Positions 7,148 through 16,073 of a DNA stretch of 25,520 bases are shown piece by piece. The stretch lies in NCBI GenBank assembly GCA_024280535.1, contig JAJRPY010000168.1, forward strand, positions 1-25,520, given 5' to 3'. How positions within the stretch are numbered: the stretch's first letter is position 1; the number at the start of each line of letters is the position of its first letter. The stretch is from Gammaproteobacteria bacterium (GTDB lineage: Bacteria > Pseudomonadota > Gammaproteobacteria > PS1 > Pseudothioglobaceae). Position numbers and translations under genes: made by a program. The notes beneath the pieces were generated by a model. It made no database searches and had not been told where the DNA came from. It saw only the letters and a list, made by a program, of their open reading frames with translations.

Positions 7148-7203
7148 AATCCACTATTCTATAATGCAAATCATCAGGTTTGCAAGTATCAAAGGAGAGC
7201 AGT

Positions 7204-7542
7204 ATGAAATTTGTCACCGCAATTTTGCGACCACACAAACTAGATGATGTCAGAGAGGCACTTTCAGAAGTGGGTGTATCGGGTATTACCGTTACTGAAG
7301 TTAAAGGCTTTGGTCGCCAAAAAGGGCATACCGAGTTATATCGTGGCGCCGAATATCAAATTGATTTTTTGCCAAAAATTAAATTAGAAGTGGCTATAAC
7401 TGCCTCAAAATTAGAAGCGGTTATTGAGGCAATTAGTAGTGTTGCCAGTTCTGGGAAAGTGGGCGATGGCAAAATTTTTGTCTCTAATTTAGAACAAGTC
7501 ATTCGTATTCGTACGGGTGAAACGGATCAAAATGCACTGTAA
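7204..7542 (+). CDS. glnK: PII nitrogen regulatory protein, first copy
   Basis: A 112-residue PII signal protein. The T-loop region TELYRGAEY contains Tyr51, the site uridylylated in proteobacteria, and the C-terminal signature [17 protein letters not shown] is typical. PII senses 2-oxoglutarate, ATP/ADP and, through uridylylation, glutamine, and gates AmtB by inserting its T-loop into the channel. ATG 7204 is preferred over upstream in-frame codons because AAAGGAG (7191-7197) lies just ahead and the protein then begins MKFVTAILRP as the family does. The ammonium transporter gene follows after 15 bp, the classic glnK-amtB arrangement. It resembles the second PII (13331) closely in protein but differs at many third codon positions, so the duplication is not recent. 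Confidence 0.95.
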   Translation: MKFVTAILRPHKLDDVREALSEVGVSGITVTEVKGFGRQKGHTELYRGAEYQIDFLPKIKLEVAITASKLEAVIEAISSVASSGKVGDGKIFVSNLEQVIRIRTGETDQNAL

Positions 7543-7557
7543 TCATTGGACAGAATA

Positions 7558-8832
7558 ATGAAAAAAATATTAATATTATTAGCTTTAATGCCGGTCACTG
7601 CACTGGCTAACGATTTAAATGGCGCAAACACTGCCTGGATTTTAACCTCAACTGCTTTAGTATTGTTTATGACTCTGCCAGGCTTGGCGTTGTTTTATGG
7701 TGGTCTAGTACGTGCCAAAAATATCTTATCTGTATTAATGCAATGTTTTGCTATTGCGGGTTTGGCATCACTTCTTTGGCTACTGGTGGGCTACTCAATT
7801 GCGTTTGCAGACGGCAATGCATATTTGGGCGATTTGTCTAAATTTATGCTATCAGGGGTAACAGAGGACACATTAAGTGGCGATATTCCTGAAAGTTTGT
7901 TTGCCTTGTTTCAGATGACATTCGCCATTATTACCCCAGCATTAATCGTTGGCGGATTTGCCGAAAGAATGAAATTTTCAGCCGTATTATTGTTTAGTGC
8001 TATTTGGCTAATTGTTGTTTATGCGCCAATTACGCATTGGGTTTGGGGTGGCGGTTGGTTAAGTGATATGGGCATACTGGATTTTGCCGGTGGTATTGTG
8101 GTGCATATTACTGCTGGTGTTGCCGCATTAGTGGCAGCGATGGTTTTAGGTCCAAGAAATGGTTTTTTGCGTAAGCCTATGCCACCTCATAATATGACTA
8201 TGACCATTACCGGTGCGGCAATGCTATGGGTTGGTTGGTTTGGCTTTAATGGTGGCTCCGCATTGGCAGCAAATGGCGATGCGGCTATGGCCATGCTGGT
8301 AACGCATATTGCAGCAGCAGCGGGGGCAATGACTTGGATGTTTTACGAGTGGATTAAATATGGCAAGCCGACAGCGCTAGGGGCAGTGACTGGTATGGTA
8401 GCAGGGCTAGGCACGATTACACCGGCTTCTGGTTTTGTGGGGCCAGCAGGTGGTTTGGTGATTGGTATTGTTGCGGGCATTGTTTGCTTTAATGCAGTTA
8501 TTTTAATCAAGCAACAATGGAAAATTGACGACTCTTTGGATGTGTTTCCCGTACATGGGGTAGGCGGTATTATAGGTACATTGATGGTGGCAGTCTTTGC
8601 ATCCAATGAGCTGGGTATTTTTTCTGGACAGGGTTTGAGTGAGGGTATGACTATTATGTCACAGTTAAAAGTTCAAGTGATTGGTGTTGCGGCAACGATT
8701 GTATATACGGCAATTGCAACTTATGTCATTCTTAAAGTAGTTGGCAGGGTGACTGGGCTAAGAGTCAGTGCCGAAGAAGAGCAACAAGGGCTGGATATCG
8801 TTTCTCATGAAGAAAGGGGCTACGATTTATAG
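7558..8832 (+). CDS. amtB: Ammonium transporter AmtB, first copy
   Basis: A 424-residue protein starting at ATG 7558, with a signal peptide (MKKILILLALMPVTALA) before the mature N-terminus, as in E. coli AmtB. Eleven membrane helices are expected. Both pore histidines are present: His160 in ITHWVWGGGW and His333 in FPVHGVGG. Other family marks are FYGGLVRAKN, FAERMKFSA and WVGWFGFNGGSALAANG. The C-terminal cytoplasmic tail (GLRVSAEEEQQGLDIVSHEERGY) matches the segment that contacts PII. It is a canonical ammonium channel regulated by the adjacent GlnK. An earlier in-frame TTG (7546) is a less likely start because it adds residues before the signal peptide. A lone mobile-element end begins 3 bp after the stop. 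Confidence 0.96.
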   Translation: MKKILILLALMPVTALANDLNGANTAWILTSTALVLFMTLPGLALFYGGLVRAKNILSVLMQCFAIAGLASLLWLLVGYSIAFADGNAYLGDLSKFMLSGVTEDTLSGDIPESLFALFQMTFAIITPALIVGGFAERMKFSAVLLFSAIWLIVVYAPITHWVWGGGWLSDMGILDFAGGIVVHITAGVAALVAAMVLGPRNGFLRKPMPPHNMTMTITGAAMLWVGWFGFNGGSALAANGDAAMAMLVTHIAAAAGAMTWMFYEWIKYGKPTALGAVTGMVAGLGTITPASGFVGPAGGLVIGIVAGIVCFNAVILIKQQWKIDDSLDVFPVHGVGGIIGTLMVAVFASNELGIFSGQGLSEGMTIMSQLKVQVIGVAATIVYTAIATYVILKVVGRVTGLRVSAEEEQQGLDIVSHEERGYDL

Positions 8833-13090: not shown

Positions 13091-13119
13091 TTGCATTGAT
13101 TGTTGAATGTCATTATAAT
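13091..13119 (+). promoter_or_regulatory. Candidate sigma-70 promoter of the glnK2 leader
   Basis: TTGCAT (13091-13096) and a perfect TATAAT (13114-13119) are spaced by 17 bp. Transcription would begin near 13126, immediately before the first leader hairpin, giving a leader of about 205 bases to the glnK2 start. It lies just past the ligase stop at 13069. Confidence 0.6.
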
Positions 13120-13130
13120 GTTGCTCAGTT

Positions 13131-13170
13131 AGAATCCAAAGACGGATTTTTACAACAAACATAGACGTTT
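13131..13170 (+). promoter_or_regulatory. ANTAR-type dual hexaloop antiterminator hairpins (P1-P2)
   Basis: P1 is a 7-bp stem (13131-13137 with 13144-13150, one G-U pair) closing the loop AAAGAC. P2 is AAAC/GTTT (13157-13160 with 13167-13170), extendable past one mismatch, closing the loop ATAGAC. Both loops have six bases with A at position 1 and G at position 4, the known ANTAR recognition pattern. The linker is about 6 bases. The 3' side of P2 is also the 5' arm of the terminator at 13163-13215, so P2 and the terminator are mutually exclusive. An ANTAR protein is encoded downstream at 15489. Loops and pairings are read from the sequence; function is inferred. Confidence 0.8.
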
Positions 13171-13215
13171 ATTTAAATTCTTTATTAGTTAGGATTTAAA
13201 TAGACGTTTTTTTTT
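13163..13215 (+). terminator. Leader intrinsic terminator T1, competing with P2
   Basis: AGACGTTTATTTAAAT (13163-13178) pairs with ATTTAAATAGACGTTT (13194-13209): 14 of 16 positions are Watson-Crick and the other two can be G-U or mismatch. Nine T (13207-13215) include the end of the arm. The stem is AT-rich but long. Its 5' arm overlaps the P2 hairpin, as in ANTAR-controlled leaders. It could also serve as the terminator of the ligase transcript. Confidence 0.75.
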
Positions 13216-13217
13216 GC

Positions 13218-13259
13218 ATGCTTCACGGGGGAGTGTTGCATCAAATGGTATCGATGCCA
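13218..13259 (+). promoter_or_regulatory. Second, degenerate dual-hairpin element (P1'-P2')
   Basis: P1' pairs ATGC and CAC (13218-13226) with GTG and GCAT (13233-13241), separated by two T-T mismatches, closing a six-base loop GGGGGA. P2' pairs TGGT (13246-13249) with GCCA (13256-13259), closing ATCGAT, a six-base loop with A1 and G4. The 3' side of P2' overlaps the 5' arm of terminator T2. The layout copies the first element, but the P1' loop has G instead of A at position 1 and both stems are weak, so this is a tentative call. Confidence 0.4.
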
Positions 13260-13308
13260 GTTAATTTTATTTGCCAGTTTGCAGATAGGATTAACTGGCA
13301 TTTTTTTT
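13254..13308 (+). terminator. Leader intrinsic terminator T2, directly upstream of glnK2
   Basis: A perfect 12-bp stem ATGCCAGTTAAT (13254-13265) with ATTAACTGGCAT (13290-13301) is followed by eight T. The loop contains a second TGCCAGTT (13272-13279) that could pair with the same 3' arm. It ends only 22 bp before the glnK2 ATG, leaving no room for a promoter, so transcripts that make glnK2 must read through it. Confidence 0.85.
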
Positions 13309-13330
13309 GGTTTAAAAAAGGAGTAAGACA

Positions 13331-13675
13331 ATGAAAATGGTAACAGCAATTATTAAGCCGTTCAAGCTTGATGATGTTAGAGAGGCACTATCAGTGATTA
13401 GTGTATCAGGTATTACAGCAACTGAAGTGAAGGGTTTTGGGCGTCAAAAAGGGCATACAGAATTATATCGAGGGGCAGAATATACGGTGGATTTTCTGCC
13501 TAAGGTCAAGTTGGAAATTGCGATAGTAGCAGATCAAGTGGATGCTGTGATTAAGGCGATTAGTTCAGCGGCAAAATCAGATGGCGGCAAGATTGGTGAT
13601 GGCAAAATATTTGTCACTTCATTAGAGCAAGTTATTCGTATTCGTACGGGTGAAACTGGTTCAGTGGCACTTTAA
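13331..13675 (+). CDS. glnK: PII nitrogen regulatory protein, second copy
   Basis: A 114-residue PII protein with Tyr51 in the T-loop ([10 protein letters not shown]) and the C-terminal [17 protein letters not shown]. It has a strong ribosome site (AAAAAAGGAG, 13314-13323). An ammonium transporter follows after 11 bp with its own AAAGGAG. Relative to the first PII it differs mainly in the B-loop region, with two extra residues ([11 protein letters not shown] against SGKVGDGK). Its upstream leader carries two terminators and ANTAR-type hairpins, so it is probably controlled by antitermination, while the first copy has an ordinary promoter. It presumably gates the adjacent Amt2 and may act on glutamine synthetase regulation; either copy could be called glnK or glnB. 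Confidence 0.95.
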
Positions 13676-13686
13676 AGGAGTAATTT

Positions 13687-14904
13687 ATGGAAAATACAAT
13701 TTTAGAATTGCAATTTGCGATAGACACGTTTTATTTTTTAATGATGGGTGCCTTGGTTATGTGGATGGCAGCAGGATTCTCGATGTTGGAAGCGGGGATG
13801 GTGCGTAGTAAAAATACGGCAGAAATTCTAACGAAAAATATTGGTTTGTTTGCGATTGCTTGTACTACGTATATGGCTTATGGTTATGACATTATGTATG
13901 GCGGTGGCGTGATGCTAGACGGCATTGAGGTTATTGCCAAAGAGGCTACTTATGCAAAGCCTGCTGATTTTTTCTTTCAGGTGGTATTTGTGGCAACGGC
14001 GATGTCGATTGTTTCTGGGGCAGTGGCTGAGCGTATGAAGTTGTTTACGTTTTTTGCCTTTGCAGTGGTTTTTACAGGGGTTATTTATCCGATGGAAGGT
14101 GCGTGGACGTGGAATAGTGAATCAGTATTTGGCATGTACACGTTAGGAGAATTAGGTTTTGCTGACTTTGCAGGATCGGGTATTGTGCATATGGCAGGTG
14201 CAGCGGCAGCATTAGCAGGTGTGATTGTGTTGGGTGCTCGTCAGGGAAAATACAATAAAGACGGTTCATCAAATGCAATTCCAGGTGCGAATATGCCATT
14301 GGCGACGCTAGGCACTTTTATTTTATGGCTGGGTTGGTTTGGTTTTAATGGTGGCTCGGTGTTGGCCATGGCCAGTAAAGATAGTGCCAATTCGGTGGCA
14401 ATGGTATTTTTGAATACCAATGCTGCTGCTGCCGGTGGTGTGATTGCAGCGTTAATCTTGGTTAGATTGCTTTGGGGTAAGGCAGATCTTACCATGGCGT
14501 TAAATGGTGCATTAGCAGGGCTAGTTGCGATTACGGCAGGGCCTGATACGCCAACGGCACTGGAGGCGACATTGATTGGTGCAGTGGGTGGTGTGTTAGT
14601 AGTATTCTCAATTTCAATGTTGGATAGGGTGTTTAAAATTGATGATCCGGTCGGTGCCATTTCTGTGCATGGTGTGGTGGGCTTATGGGGTTTGTTAGCT
14701 GTACCCTTAACCAATTCAGGTGTTTCGTTTACGGGGCAGCTGGCAGGTGCAGGCACAATCTTTGTATGGGTATTTGGCACTTCAATGGTTTTATGGTTAA
14801 TCCTTAAAGCGGTGATGGGTATTAGAATCTCAGCAGAAGAAGAATACGCCGGTTCTGATATTTCAGAATGTGGCTTAGAGGCTTATCCAGAGTTTACAAA
14901 GTAA
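13687..14904 (+). CDS. amt: Ammonium transporter family protein, second copy (first pore His replaced)
   Basis: A 405-residue Amt-family membrane protein of a subfamily distinct from the first copy, without a cleaved signal peptide. Family marks include MLEAGMVRSKNTAEILTKN, VSGAVAERMKLFTF, WLGWFGFNGGSVLAM and the C-terminal MGIRISAEEEYAGSDISECG that would contact PII. The second pore His is present (His328 in AISVHGVVGLW). At the position of the first pore His, where the first copy has THW, this protein has GAW (Ala139), with Glu137 two residues before. Related Amt sequences with EGSW-type motifs exist, so this is likely a subfamily trait rather than damage. Transport kinetics may differ, or it may work partly as a sensor. 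Cotranscribed with glnK2. Confidence 0.93.
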   Translation: MENTILELQFAIDTFYFLMMGALVMWMAAGFSMLEAGMVRSKNTAEILTKNIGLFAIACTTYMAYGYDIMYGGGVMLDGIEVIAKEATYAKPADFFFQVVFVATAMSIVSGAVAERMKLFTFFAFAVVFTGVIYPMEGAWTWNSESVFGMYTLGELGFADFAGSGIVHMAGAAAALAGVIVLGARQGKYNKDGSSNAIPGANMPLATLGTFILWLGWFGFNGGSVLAMASKDSANSVAMVFLNTNAAAAGGVIAALILVRLLWGKADLTMALNGALAGLVAITAGPDTPTALEATLIGAVGGVLVVFSISMLDRVFKIDDPVGAISVHGVVGLWGLLAVPLTNSGVSFTGQLAGAGTIFVWVFGTSMVLWLILKAVMGIRISAEEEYAGSDISECGLEAYPEFTK

Positions 14905-15026: not shown

Positions 15027-15470
15027 ATGATTGTTCAAGATATTATGACCACCAATGTAAAAACCGTTTCCCCGGATCAACCCGTTAAGGATATTGCATT
15101 AATGATGATTATGGATCACATTAGTGGCGCCCCTGTTGTGGACGCAGATAATAACCTAGTGGGTATTATTTCTGAAAAGGATATTTTGCAGCATATGTTT
15201 CCAGAACTTGAAGAGATTATGAGCGATACCCATTTTGATTTTGAAAATATGGAAACAAATTATAAAGACACGATGAATGCCAAAATTAGTGACATTATGA
15301 CCCATGGCGTAGATAGTATTGATGTGGATATGCCTTGTTTGAAGGCAGCAAGCACGATGTGGCTTAGAAATTATCGCAGGATTCCAGTCACCCAACAAGG
15401 TAAGTTGATTGGCATTATTAGTATTGGTGATGTGCATAGAGCGATTTTTAAATCGTGTATGACCTCATAA
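15027..15470 (+). CDS. CBS-domain pair protein
   Basis: A 147-residue cytoplasmic protein made almost only of two CBS motifs: residues 1-55 (MIVQDIMTTNVKTVSPDQPV ... NNLVGIISEKDIL) and about 88-145 (KISDIMTHGVDSIDVDMPCL ... GKLIGIISIGDVHRAIF). The acidic insert between them (FPELEEIMSDTHFDFENMET) is a common linker in stand-alone CBS proteins. Such pairs bind adenine nucleotides or similar ligands and report energy state, usually to a partner protein. It has a good ribosome site (AAGGAG, 15016-15021). It lies between the Amt2 operon and the ANTAR gene (18 bp to the latter), so it may convey an energy or nucleotide signal to that regulator; this is inference from position. No enzymatic domain is present. 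Confidence 0.85.
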   Translation: MIVQDIMTTNVKTVSPDQPVKDIALMMIMDHISGAPVVDADNNLVGIISEKDILQHMFPELEEIMSDTHFDFENMETNYKDTMNAKISDIMTHGVDSIDVDMPCLKAASTMWLRNYRRIPVTQQGKLIGIISIGDVHRAIFKSCMTS

Positions 15471-15488: not shown

Positions 15489-16073
15489 ATGAATATAGCA
15501 CTTAAAATTATCTTAGTGGATAAAAATACTGGGCGTTCTGCTATGTTGCGCAGAGCCTTACAAGACAAGGGTCATGAGGTGATTTGCCGTATGAACGATA
15601 GCTCACAATTGCTTGATAGCAATGAAATGACGCATGCGGATGTGGTGATTGTGAATGCAGATATTCCAGATGAAGCAGTGTTTGCCAATCTAACGGATGT
15701 TAATAATAGCAAGCCCAAGCCGATTGTAATGTTTACCGAAGAATCAAATTCTGAAATGGCAAATTCTGCGATTAAGTCGGGTGTTAATGCTTATATTGTT
15801 GACGGGCTTGAGGAAGACCGAGTGCAGCCAATTATTGATGTTGCCATAGCGCGTTTTAGAGAGTTTCAGGCGCTGAAAGATGAATTAGACGCAACCCGTA
15901 ATCAATTATCAGAGCGTAAGGCAGTTGAGAAGGCTAAGGGCTTATTAATGAAGCATAAGGGGGTCAATGAGAATGATGCCTATCAGTCTTTACGCAAGAT
16001 GGCAATGGACAAAAACAAGCGTATTGTGGACGTTTCTGAAGGTGTTATTAGTGCGTTTGAATTATTGGAATAA
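15489..16073 (+). CDS. ANTAR-domain RNA-binding antiterminator (NasT-like)
   Basis: A 194-residue protein with a receiver-like N-terminal domain (residues 5-120), a coiled linker (REFQALKDELDATRNQLSER) and a C-terminal ANTAR domain (about 137-190; KAVEKAKGLLMKHKGVNEND, with the conserved AYQSLRKMAM). ANTAR proteins bind paired hexaloop hairpins in leader RNA and prevent formation of a terminator. In NasT and relatives the protein is held by the nitrate sensor NasS. Here the phospho-acceptor position in the receiver is Asn56 (VVIVNADIPD) and only one Asp (D11) is present at the acidic pocket, so phosphorylation is unlikely. No nasS is visible; the gene follows a CBS protein and lies downstream of glnK2-amt2, whose leader has matching hairpins. 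The start has no strong Shine-Dalgarno. It converges on tatC with a 6-bp gap. Confidence 0.88.
   Translation: MNIALKIILVDKNTGRSAMLRRALQDKGHEVICRMNDSSQLLDSNEMTHADVVIVNADIPDEAVFANLTDVNNSKPKPIVMFTEESNSEMANSAIKSGVNAYIVDGLEEDRVQPIIDVAIARFREFQALKDELDATRNQLSERKAVEKAKGLLMKHKGVNENDAYQSLRKMAMDKNKRIVDVSEGVISAFELLE

What the first reader, a model, noticed from the sequence alone, without database searches (positions are those of the whole stretch)
13120..13330. Leader of glnK2-amt2 with tandem terminators and ANTAR-type hexaloop hairpins
Seen: a TTGCAT-N17-TATAAT promoter, then P1 (loop AAAGAC) and P2 (loop ATAGAC), both six-base loops with A1 and G4. Terminator T1 has a 5' arm that is the 3' side of P2. 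A second, weaker pair follows (loops GGGGGA and ATCGAT), whose second hairpin overlaps the 5' arm of strong terminator T2, 22 bp from glnK2. Known: ANTAR proteins bind such paired hexaloops and block an overlapping terminator. Inference: the operon is gated by two successive antitermination modules, perhaps to make induction steep. A doubled arrangement of this kind is not one I know to be described.
Basis: partly seen in the sequence, partly recalled or inferred. Interest (0 to 1): 0.9.

Follow-up and report, generated by a model that had tools for sequence, protein, structure and literature searches.

The report
Two-stage ANTAR antitermination leader
In one bacterial family, the RNA leaders of an ammonium-uptake operon and of a nitrite-assimilation gene carry two stop signals in a row, each overlapped by hairpins that look like binding sites for the same anti-stop protein, an arrangement we have not found described.

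Summary
The finding is largely real and reaches beyond the window. Promoter -10 box, P1/P2 hexaloops, terminator T1, P4 and terminator T2 are present; a P1-P2-terminator rule hits the window once and none of 30 shuffles. The second pair is weak here: P3 has no A1/G4 hexaloop and a module-2 model scores at chance (6.2 bits, E 1.2). Comparison supports it. In 58 glnK2 leaders of the family (Pseudothioglobaceae), module 1 is conserved with compensatory changes in P1, and P4 occurs in 56, overlapping T2 in 52. Models trained on glnK2 leaders alone find module 1 in 29 and module 2 in 27 of 30 nirB loci, own genome included. An ANTAR gene was found in 68 of 83 genomes, single in 66; it has Asn at the phospho-site in 46 of 46 proteins, and no NasS-like match in the genus. 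Best reading: two ANTAR antitermination gates in series, the second less certain in the window genus, where P3 is a pentaloop. ANTAR control of P-II/amt genes is known; serial doubling was not found in our searches. Binding, termination and steep induction are untested.

The parts
13091..13119 (+). promoter-like TTGCAT-N17-TATAAT; perfect -10, poor -35; transcription expected to start just before P1
   Evidence: not listed by the scan; a box matching TATAAT at 5 or 6 of 6 lies 8-32 nt before the P1 loop in 58 of 58 leaders
13128..13153 (+). P1 hairpin, loop AAAGAC (A1, G4)
   Evidence: G4 58/58 and A1 49/58 in glnK2 leaders
13157..13170 (+). P2 hairpin, loop ATAGAC (A1, G4)
   Evidence: G4 58/58, A1 55/58; stem almost invariant, one compensated pair in one leader
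13163..13215 (+). T1 intrinsic terminator, A+U-rich; 5' arm overlaps the loop end and 3' side of P2; U-run to 13215
   Evidence: overlap found in 56 of 58 glnK2 leaders
13220..13234 (+). P3 hairpin in the conserved register, GCTTC[ACGGG]GGAGT, a pentaloop (hexaloop, mostly AAAGNN, in many relatives)
   Evidence: weak in the window
13246..13259 (+). P4 hairpin, TGGT[ATCGAT]GCCA (A1, G4)
   Evidence: 56 of 58 glnK2 leaders hold such a hairpin, against 1.6% of shuffles
13253..13308 (+). T2 intrinsic terminator; 5' arm contains the 3' side of P4; U-run to 13308
   Evidence: overlap in 52 of 56 leaders
13331..13675 (+). glnK2, P-II signal protein
   Evidence: PF00543
13687..14904 (+). amt2, ammonium transporter, marine subtype TIGR03644
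15489..16073 (+). pseudo-receiver + ANTAR protein, the only ANTAR gene found in the genome (83% complete); probable regulator

Best explanation
The glnK2-amt2 mRNA starts just before a leader with two ANTAR antitermination units in series: P1-P2 overlapping terminator T1, then P3-P4 overlapping terminator T2. Shown: the parts, their order, their conservation in the family at glnK2-amt2 and at nirB, compensatory changes in P1 and P3, and the overlap of P2 with T1 and of P4 with T2. Where an ANTAR gene was found it is nearly always single. Inferred: without active ANTAR protein, polymerase stops at T1 and what leaks stops at T2; active ANTAR binds the hexaloops, holds P2 and P4 open and lets polymerase pass both. 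Two gates would multiply their leak fractions, giving a lower uninduced level and a steeper response. Because the receiver lacks its phospho-acceptor Asp and no NasS-like partner was found in the genus, activity is probably set by a partner protein or ligand rather than by phosphorylation. In the window genus P3 has become a pentaloop at glnK2, so there the second gate rests mainly on P4, or is partly relaxed.
For: 58 distinct glnK2 leaders. P1-P2 on 56 of them: 59 cells changed on both sides against 25.4 in shuffles (0/500 reach it), 92% paired against 37-62% when slid. P3-P4 on the 29 with a good hexaloop P3: 19 against 5.8 (0/500). RNAalifold picks P1, P2 and P4 unaided. T1 overlaps P2 in 56 of 58 and T2 overlaps P4 in 52 of 56. 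Models from glnK2 leaders find module 1 in 29 of 30 nirB loci (E up to 0.032) and module 2 in 27 of 30 (E up to 0.01), own genome included. serB in genus g3 is double in two genomes (L206, L243). Single units occur too: module-1 type before serC and aldolase, P4 type before a PDC-like gene in three g6 genomes. ANTAR gene and module-1 matches co-occur over 83 genomes (65 both, 3 ANTAR only, 9 site only, 6 neither; counted by hand, Fisher p 0.0008). By eye, on the alignment with an inferred numbering offset, six EutV RNA-contact residues (K143, K147, Y164, R168, M172, R177; passages of PMC8934654) are matched.
Against: The window's own module 2 is not above chance, and in the family scan with R2 the own genome has no match at E 0.1 or better, neither at glnK2 nor at nirB (stricter filters; 73 of 83 genomes have some match, many weak ones look like chance). 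The own nirB site is weak in the genome-wide R1 scan (20.9 bits, E 0.056). P3 scores best as a pentaloop in 26 of 56 glnK2 leaders, and its choice demanded A1. Some of the five covariation measures are not exceptional (pairs changed on both sides 3 against 3.0; further pair types 10 against 8.6). P2 and P4 stems hardly vary. In L032, closest by Amt2, P2 and T1 are weakened and the P4 loop has G1 (by eye). Loop position 1 is G in P1 of 9 and P2 of 3 of 58. EutV contacts N173 and R175 are Asp and Asn here (by eye). The -35 box is poor and T1 A+U-rich. No binding, RNA-seq or 3'-end data. nirB and glnK2 leaders come from the same or related genomes and may share ancestry.
Confidence: 0.73

Rival explanations
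1. Only module 1 is ANTAR-controlled. T2 is a plain second terminator that sets a fixed readthrough level, and P3/P4 are leftovers or chance.
For: Window module 2 scores at chance; P3 is a pentaloop in 9 of 10 window-genus leaders and was not recognised in the tenth; T2 is very stable; single module-1 leaders exist before serC and aldolase.
Against: T2 overlaps P4 in 52 of 56 glnK2 leaders; P4 in 56/58 and 28/28 against 1.6% and 2.4% of shuffles; hexaloop P3 covaries; module 2 recurs before nirB and serB; a P4-type unit stands alone before another gene in three g6 genomes.
Confidence: 0.16
2. Module 2 is read by something other than the ANTAR protein (another RNA-binding protein, or a metabolite), giving a two-input AND gate.
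For: P3 loop constraints differ from P1; two inputs would explain keeping two different gates.
Against: Hexaloop P3 and P4 loops resemble P1 and P2 loops in the same order (mostly AAAG.. then AT.G..); no relevant Rfam match at E up to 5; no second ANTAR gene in the own genome.
Confidence: 0.08
3. Translation of a leader peptide controls T1/T2 (classical attenuation).
For: Overlapping alternative hairpins and terminators are also typical of attenuators; 52 of 58 leaders hold some start codon with at least six codons between P1 and T1.
Against: The window has no ATG, GTG or TTG in 13126-13207; in the 12 leaders listed there the positions vary. Loops are what is conserved.
Confidence: 0.03

Closest known systems
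ANTAR target RNAs (eutP/eutG/eutS/eutA of Enterococcus faecalis; nasF of Klebsiella; amiE of Pseudomonas), PMC3369931 (passages and part of section 10)
   Same: Two short hairpins with hexanucleotide loops, A1 and G4, P2 overlapping an intrinsic terminator; nitrogen genes including P-II and ammonium transporters among predicted targets
   Different: In the passages read, one unit goes with one terminator; here two units follow each other before one gene, at two or more operons. The paper reports at least 13 sites in six transcription units in D. acetoxidans; we could not see whether any are in series.
NasT-NasS nitrate assimilation control (PMC5424462, passages; PMC6759348, listing only)
   Same: Receiver-like ANTAR protein; nitrate/nitrite assimilation leader with hairpins
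   Different: No NasS-like match in 12 genus genomes (family: 11 of 83 at E 0.001, 4 over cut-off); targets include ammonium uptake; doubled leader
Tandem T-box and tandem riboswitch leaders (recalled, e.g. B. subtilis thrZ; not from a call)
   Same: Repeated antitermination gates in series before one gene
   Different: Those sense tRNA or a metabolite by RNA; here the gates look like protein-binding hexaloop pairs

Membership tests
ANTAR target RNA (module 1) | two stem-loops with hexanucleotide loops, A1 and G4 | tested here: met
   window AAAGAC and ATAGAC; G4 58/58 in both, A1 49/58 and 55/58
ANTAR target RNA (module 1) | short linker between hairpins (5-12 nt in eut; 2-25 accepted in PMC8164766) | tested here: met
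   window 6 nt counted from a 7-position P1 arm (3 nt from the full 10-position arm); 5-8 nt in 56 of 58, 12-13 in two
ANTAR target RNA (module 1) | intrinsic terminator overlapping the 3' side of P2 | tested here: met
   56 of 58 leaders
ANTAR target RNA (module 2, in the family) | two A1/G4 hexaloops overlapping a terminator | tested here: inconclusive
   Met where P3 is a hexaloop: 30 of 56 glnK2 leaders (29 with a good stem), with P4 in 56 of 58, and module 2 found in 27 of 30 nirB loci; the other 26 of 56 have a pentaloop P3
ANTAR target RNA (module 2, in this window) | two A1/G4 hexaloops | tested here: not met
ANTAR target RNA | ANTAR protein encoded in the same genome | tested here: met
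   one in G000; 68 of 83 family genomes, 0 of 14 controls
ANTAR target RNA | binding by the ANTAR protein and antitermination | not testable with these tools
   needs purified protein and RNA
Rfam RNA family | match to a curated covariance model | tested here: not met
   one irrelevant match below its gathering score, E up to 5; whether Rfam holds an ANTAR-site family was not checked
ANTAR response regulator (EutV type) | ANTAR domain with RNA-contact residues | tested here: met
   PF03861 64 bits, over cut-off; six of eight contact residues matched by eye on the alignment to 6wsh
ANTAR response regulator (EutV type) | phospho-acceptor Asp in the receiver | tested here: not met
   Asn in 46 of 46 distinct family proteins, aligned with an Asp of EutV
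NasT-NasS system | NasS partner | tested here: not met
   PF13379 as proxy: no match in any of 12 genus genomes

The most novel reading that the evidence does not exclude
One ANTAR dimer loaded at P1 escorts the polymerase and is handed from P2 to P4, opening both terminators from a single loading event. That would let P3 lose its hexaloop at glnK2 in whole lineages while P4 stays intact, and would be a limited form of processive antitermination by a hairpin-binding protein.
Probability: 0.12. Interest if true: 0.8.

Novelty: new variant of a known kind. Interest (0 to 1): 0.62.

Why it matters
If true, protein-controlled antitermination is used as two gates in series, kept across a bacterial family at ammonium uptake and nitrite assimilation together. 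That gives a natural test of whether doubling a termination gate lowers leak and steepens induction. It also points to one ANTAR protein, with no phospho-site and no NasS-like partner found, as a likely nitrogen switch of these bacteria, and opens the question of what it senses.

Tried and rejected
Rejected: serB of the window as a further target (R1 hit 1211-1249, 13.1 bits, E 0.09 in the window, and 0.37 over 30 serB loci; many of the other serB upstream regions printed look like a tRNA gene, by eye). Rejected as chance by eye (no overlapping terminator, or inside genes): R1 matches L296, L302 (G254, the only match outside the family among 274 class genomes), L304 and L305. Rejected as a universal partner: the PDC-like protein (19 of 83 genomes, not in the own genome). 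Outside the family R1 found nothing convincing in 78 glnK-amt loci (two matches, E 0.27 and 0.81). A strict tandem rule found 0 tandems there and single hits on 4 locus strands, against tandems in 22 of 58 glnK2 and 14 of 28 nirB leaders; the single hit near glnK in L097 looked like chance.

Dropped before counts: of 63 leaders extracted, duplicates L061, L062 and L172 (same as L042, L056, L058), L049 (no recognisable leader) and L169 (module 1 missing, beside a broken amt2). L144 and L170 were left out of R1 (long linkers). L032 and L164 had no P4 by a search pattern that itself demands A1 and G4. L051 and L143 were left out of A4. R2 was built from 29 of the 54 sequences of A4. nirB: the 30 best loci were examined, of 41 genomes with a match; a start was found by script in 28. 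Of the other R1 sites only those fetched were looked at.

Literature: 10 searches over open-licence PMC papers only. Nothing in the listings or passages seen showed ANTAR units in series. PMC8164766: passages, no occurrence of 'tandem'. PMC3369931: passages and part 1 of section 10. PMC8934654 and PMC5424462: passages. PMC6759348: listing only. Figures and supplements were not seen, so an example there, as in D. acetoxidans, is not excluded.

Full report
What is in the window. The window lies in a small genome (1.27 Mb, 83% complete). A named relative, L062, is Ca. Thiodubiliella, placed in Pseudothioglobaceae; its 420 bases upstream of glnK2 are identical to those of family genome G090 (L056). 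Downstream of ligA lie glnK2 (13331-13675), amt2 (13687-14904), a CBS-domain gene (15027-15470) and a receiver-ANTAR gene (15489-16073) (ligA recalled from its sequence). The leader has P1, P2, T1, P4 and T2 at the stated places and a TATAAT box. A rule for two A1/G4 hexaloops plus an overlapping terminator finds it once on the + strand, nothing on the - strand and nothing in 30 shuffles. Against this: TTGCAT is a poor -35 box, so the scan does not list the promoter, and T1 has only 3 G-C pairs of 18; that scan lists T2 but not T1.

It is the lowest-energy fold of this one sequence but is not kept in relatives. The register kept in 9 of 10 same-genus leaders is TTC[5 nt]GGA, a pentaloop. A covariance model of module 2 (R2, 29 leaders, none from this genome) gives the window's module 2 only 6.2 bits, E 1.2, below two other places in the window. 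From the window alone the second module would not be accepted.

Comparison at glnK2-amt2. 63 leaders upstream of glnK2 were extracted and 58 kept after removing three duplicates and two without module 1. RNAalifold, given no structure, draws P1 and P2 on the 58 module-1 sequences; 8 of its 13 pairs have changes on both sides, seven in P1 and one (a single leader) in P2. It draws P4, but not P3, on 56 module-2 sequences, with one compensated pair. For P1-P2 on 56 sequences, 92.2% of cells pair (shuffles 82.1%) and 59 cells have both sides changed (shuffles 25.4), both reached by 0 of 500 shuffles; slid versions pair 37-62%; the number of pairs changed on both sides, 3, is what shuffles give. 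G4 is present in 58 of 58 P1 and 58 of 58 P2 loops; A1 in 49 and 55, the rest G. Terminators overlap P2 in 56 of 58 and P4 in 52 of 56; the four T2 misses have a broken T-run. A P4-like hairpin occurs in 56 of 58 leaders against 1.6% of shuffles. Choosing P3 by best stem among loops starting with A (hexaloops also with G4) gives a hexaloop in 30 of 56 leaders (29 with a good stem) and a pentaloop in 26 (24 with a good stem). On the 29 hexaloop leaders the stem covaries (19 both-side cells against 5.8, 0 of 500; further pair types 10 against 8.6, not exceptional). The loops tend to repeat in order: P1 is AAAG.. in 37 of 58 and hexaloop P3 in 28 of 30; P2 is AT.G.. in 40 of 58 and P4 in 55 of 56.

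A second operon with the same double leader. R1, built from glnK2 module 1, finds the window site (47.8 bits) and one weak further site in the own genome, G000:C108:5879-5915 (20.9 bits, E 0.056), before nirB (TIGR02374, 755.6 bits, over cut-off). The 30 best nirB loci of the family (41 of 83 genomes have a match) were then searched. R1 hits 29 of 30 (E up to 0.032) and R2 hits 27 of 30 at E up to 0.01, downstream of the R1 hit; L263 is weaker (E 0.065), L258 has no R2 hit, L283 has neither. Of 28 nirB leaders read, P2 was found by script in 26, each with an overlapping T1; T2 overlapped P4 in 24 of those 26; P4 was found by one pattern in 27 and by a wider one in 28 (2.4% of shuffles). The own-genome nirB leader has P4 ATGGAA and, by eye, a hexaloop P3 AAAGGT. 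Models made at one operon finding both units in order at another is the strongest evidence that module 2 is real. Against it, in the genome-wide R2 scan the own genome has no match at E 0.1 or better (stricter filters).

A wider set of targets, from the sites fetched. serB in genus g3 is double in L206 (SerB over cut-off) and L243 (R1, R2; gene by similarity). Three leaders before a NarK-like transporter (L218, L290, L300; TIGR00886 below its cut-off in L218 and L290, L300 by similarity) have module 1 and, by eye, a P4 GGC[ATTGAG]GCC before a terminator, though R2 does not score it. Module 1 without an R2 match precedes serC (nine loci by similarity, one checked), class I aldolase (L221 checked, L287 by similarity), a 94-aa protein (L220 checked, no family; L291, L294 by similarity), a putative porin (L223) and a 274-aa protein without a family (L211). 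In three g6 genomes (G026, G032, G103) a single P4-type unit precedes a gene with weak, below-cut-off PDC-like matches beside glnK2. Several weak R1 matches look like chance.

The regulator. PF03861 matches 68 of 83 genomes: once in 66 and twice in two (G030, G035), with at least one piece at a contig end there; none in 15. The gene follows amt2 on the same strand within 1.6 kb in 42 of 55 loci; of the other 13, seven have under 1.6 kb left to judge and six lack it. ANTAR gene and R1 matches co-occur (65 both, 3, 9 and 6 neither, p 0.0008; the table includes weak R1 matches, and genomes are often incomplete and related, so this is only indicative). All 46 distinct proteins have Asn where EutV has Asp. 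A proxy search for NasS (PF13379) gives no match in the 12 genus genomes; in the family 11 of 83 at E 0.001 and 4 over cut-off. The signal is thus probably neither phosphorylation nor NasS; what it is remains open.

How it probably works. Transcription would start just before P1; a TATAAT-like box precedes P1 in 58 of 58 leaders. Without active ANTAR protein T1 stops polymerases and T2 those that leak. ANTAR binding to the hexaloops holds P2, then P4, and lets polymerase into glnK2. Two gates in series multiply their leaks; this and a steeper response are inference. In EutV work the minimal bound element is a single hexaloop, and a recruitment-then-antitermination order of P1 and P2 is proposed (PMC8934654, passages). 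On that model a loaded protein might be handed on to P4, which would explain why P3 could lose its hexaloop at glnK2; this is the boldest reading and is untested.

Comparison with what is known. ANTAR sites before P-II and ammonium transporter genes are in print (PMC3369931). In ten searches of open-licence papers nothing seen described ANTAR units in series before one gene, but that paper reports at least 13 sites in six transcription units in D. acetoxidans, whose figure and tables we could not see. Outside the family our tests were few: 78 glnK-amt loci and 274 class genomes, a few of them of the family, with the family-trained R1, which would miss distant forms. The claim is therefore a new variant of ANTAR antitermination, conserved in this family, not a new kind of system.

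Noticed in passing
window 7180-8832: A second glnK-amt pair (amt1) in the same window; no R1 or R2 match better than chance precedes it, so the two ammonium systems may be controlled differently.
   Followed up: partly
window 15489-16073: The receiver has Asn at the phospho-acceptor position, as do all 46 distinct family proteins compared.
   Followed up: yes
L307, L308, L309 (genus g6), upstream of glnK2: A protein of about 311 aa with weak PDC/YkuI_C matches sits before glnK2 in several genera and in three g6 genomes has its own single P4-type unit; not found in the window's genome.
   Followed up: partly
L147, L151, L153: In three g3 genomes both P1 and P2 loops of module 1 have G at position 1, while P3 and P4 keep A1: a correlated change in one module only.
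   Followed up: no
L167, L169, L170, L171 (genus g2 genomes): amt2 appears only in broken pieces in these single-contig genomes while glnK2, parts of the leader and an ANTAR gene remain; in L169 module 1 is missing.
   Followed up: no
window 15027-15470: A CBS-domain gene stands between amt2 and the ANTAR gene here; in five of 42 loci with both genes the gap is under 150 nt, so it is not always there.
   Followed up: no
L205, L288, L289, L292, L293, L295, L297, L298, L299; L206, L243: In genus g3 serC has a module-1 leader and serB a double one in two genomes, which would link serine synthesis to the same regulator.
   Followed up: partly
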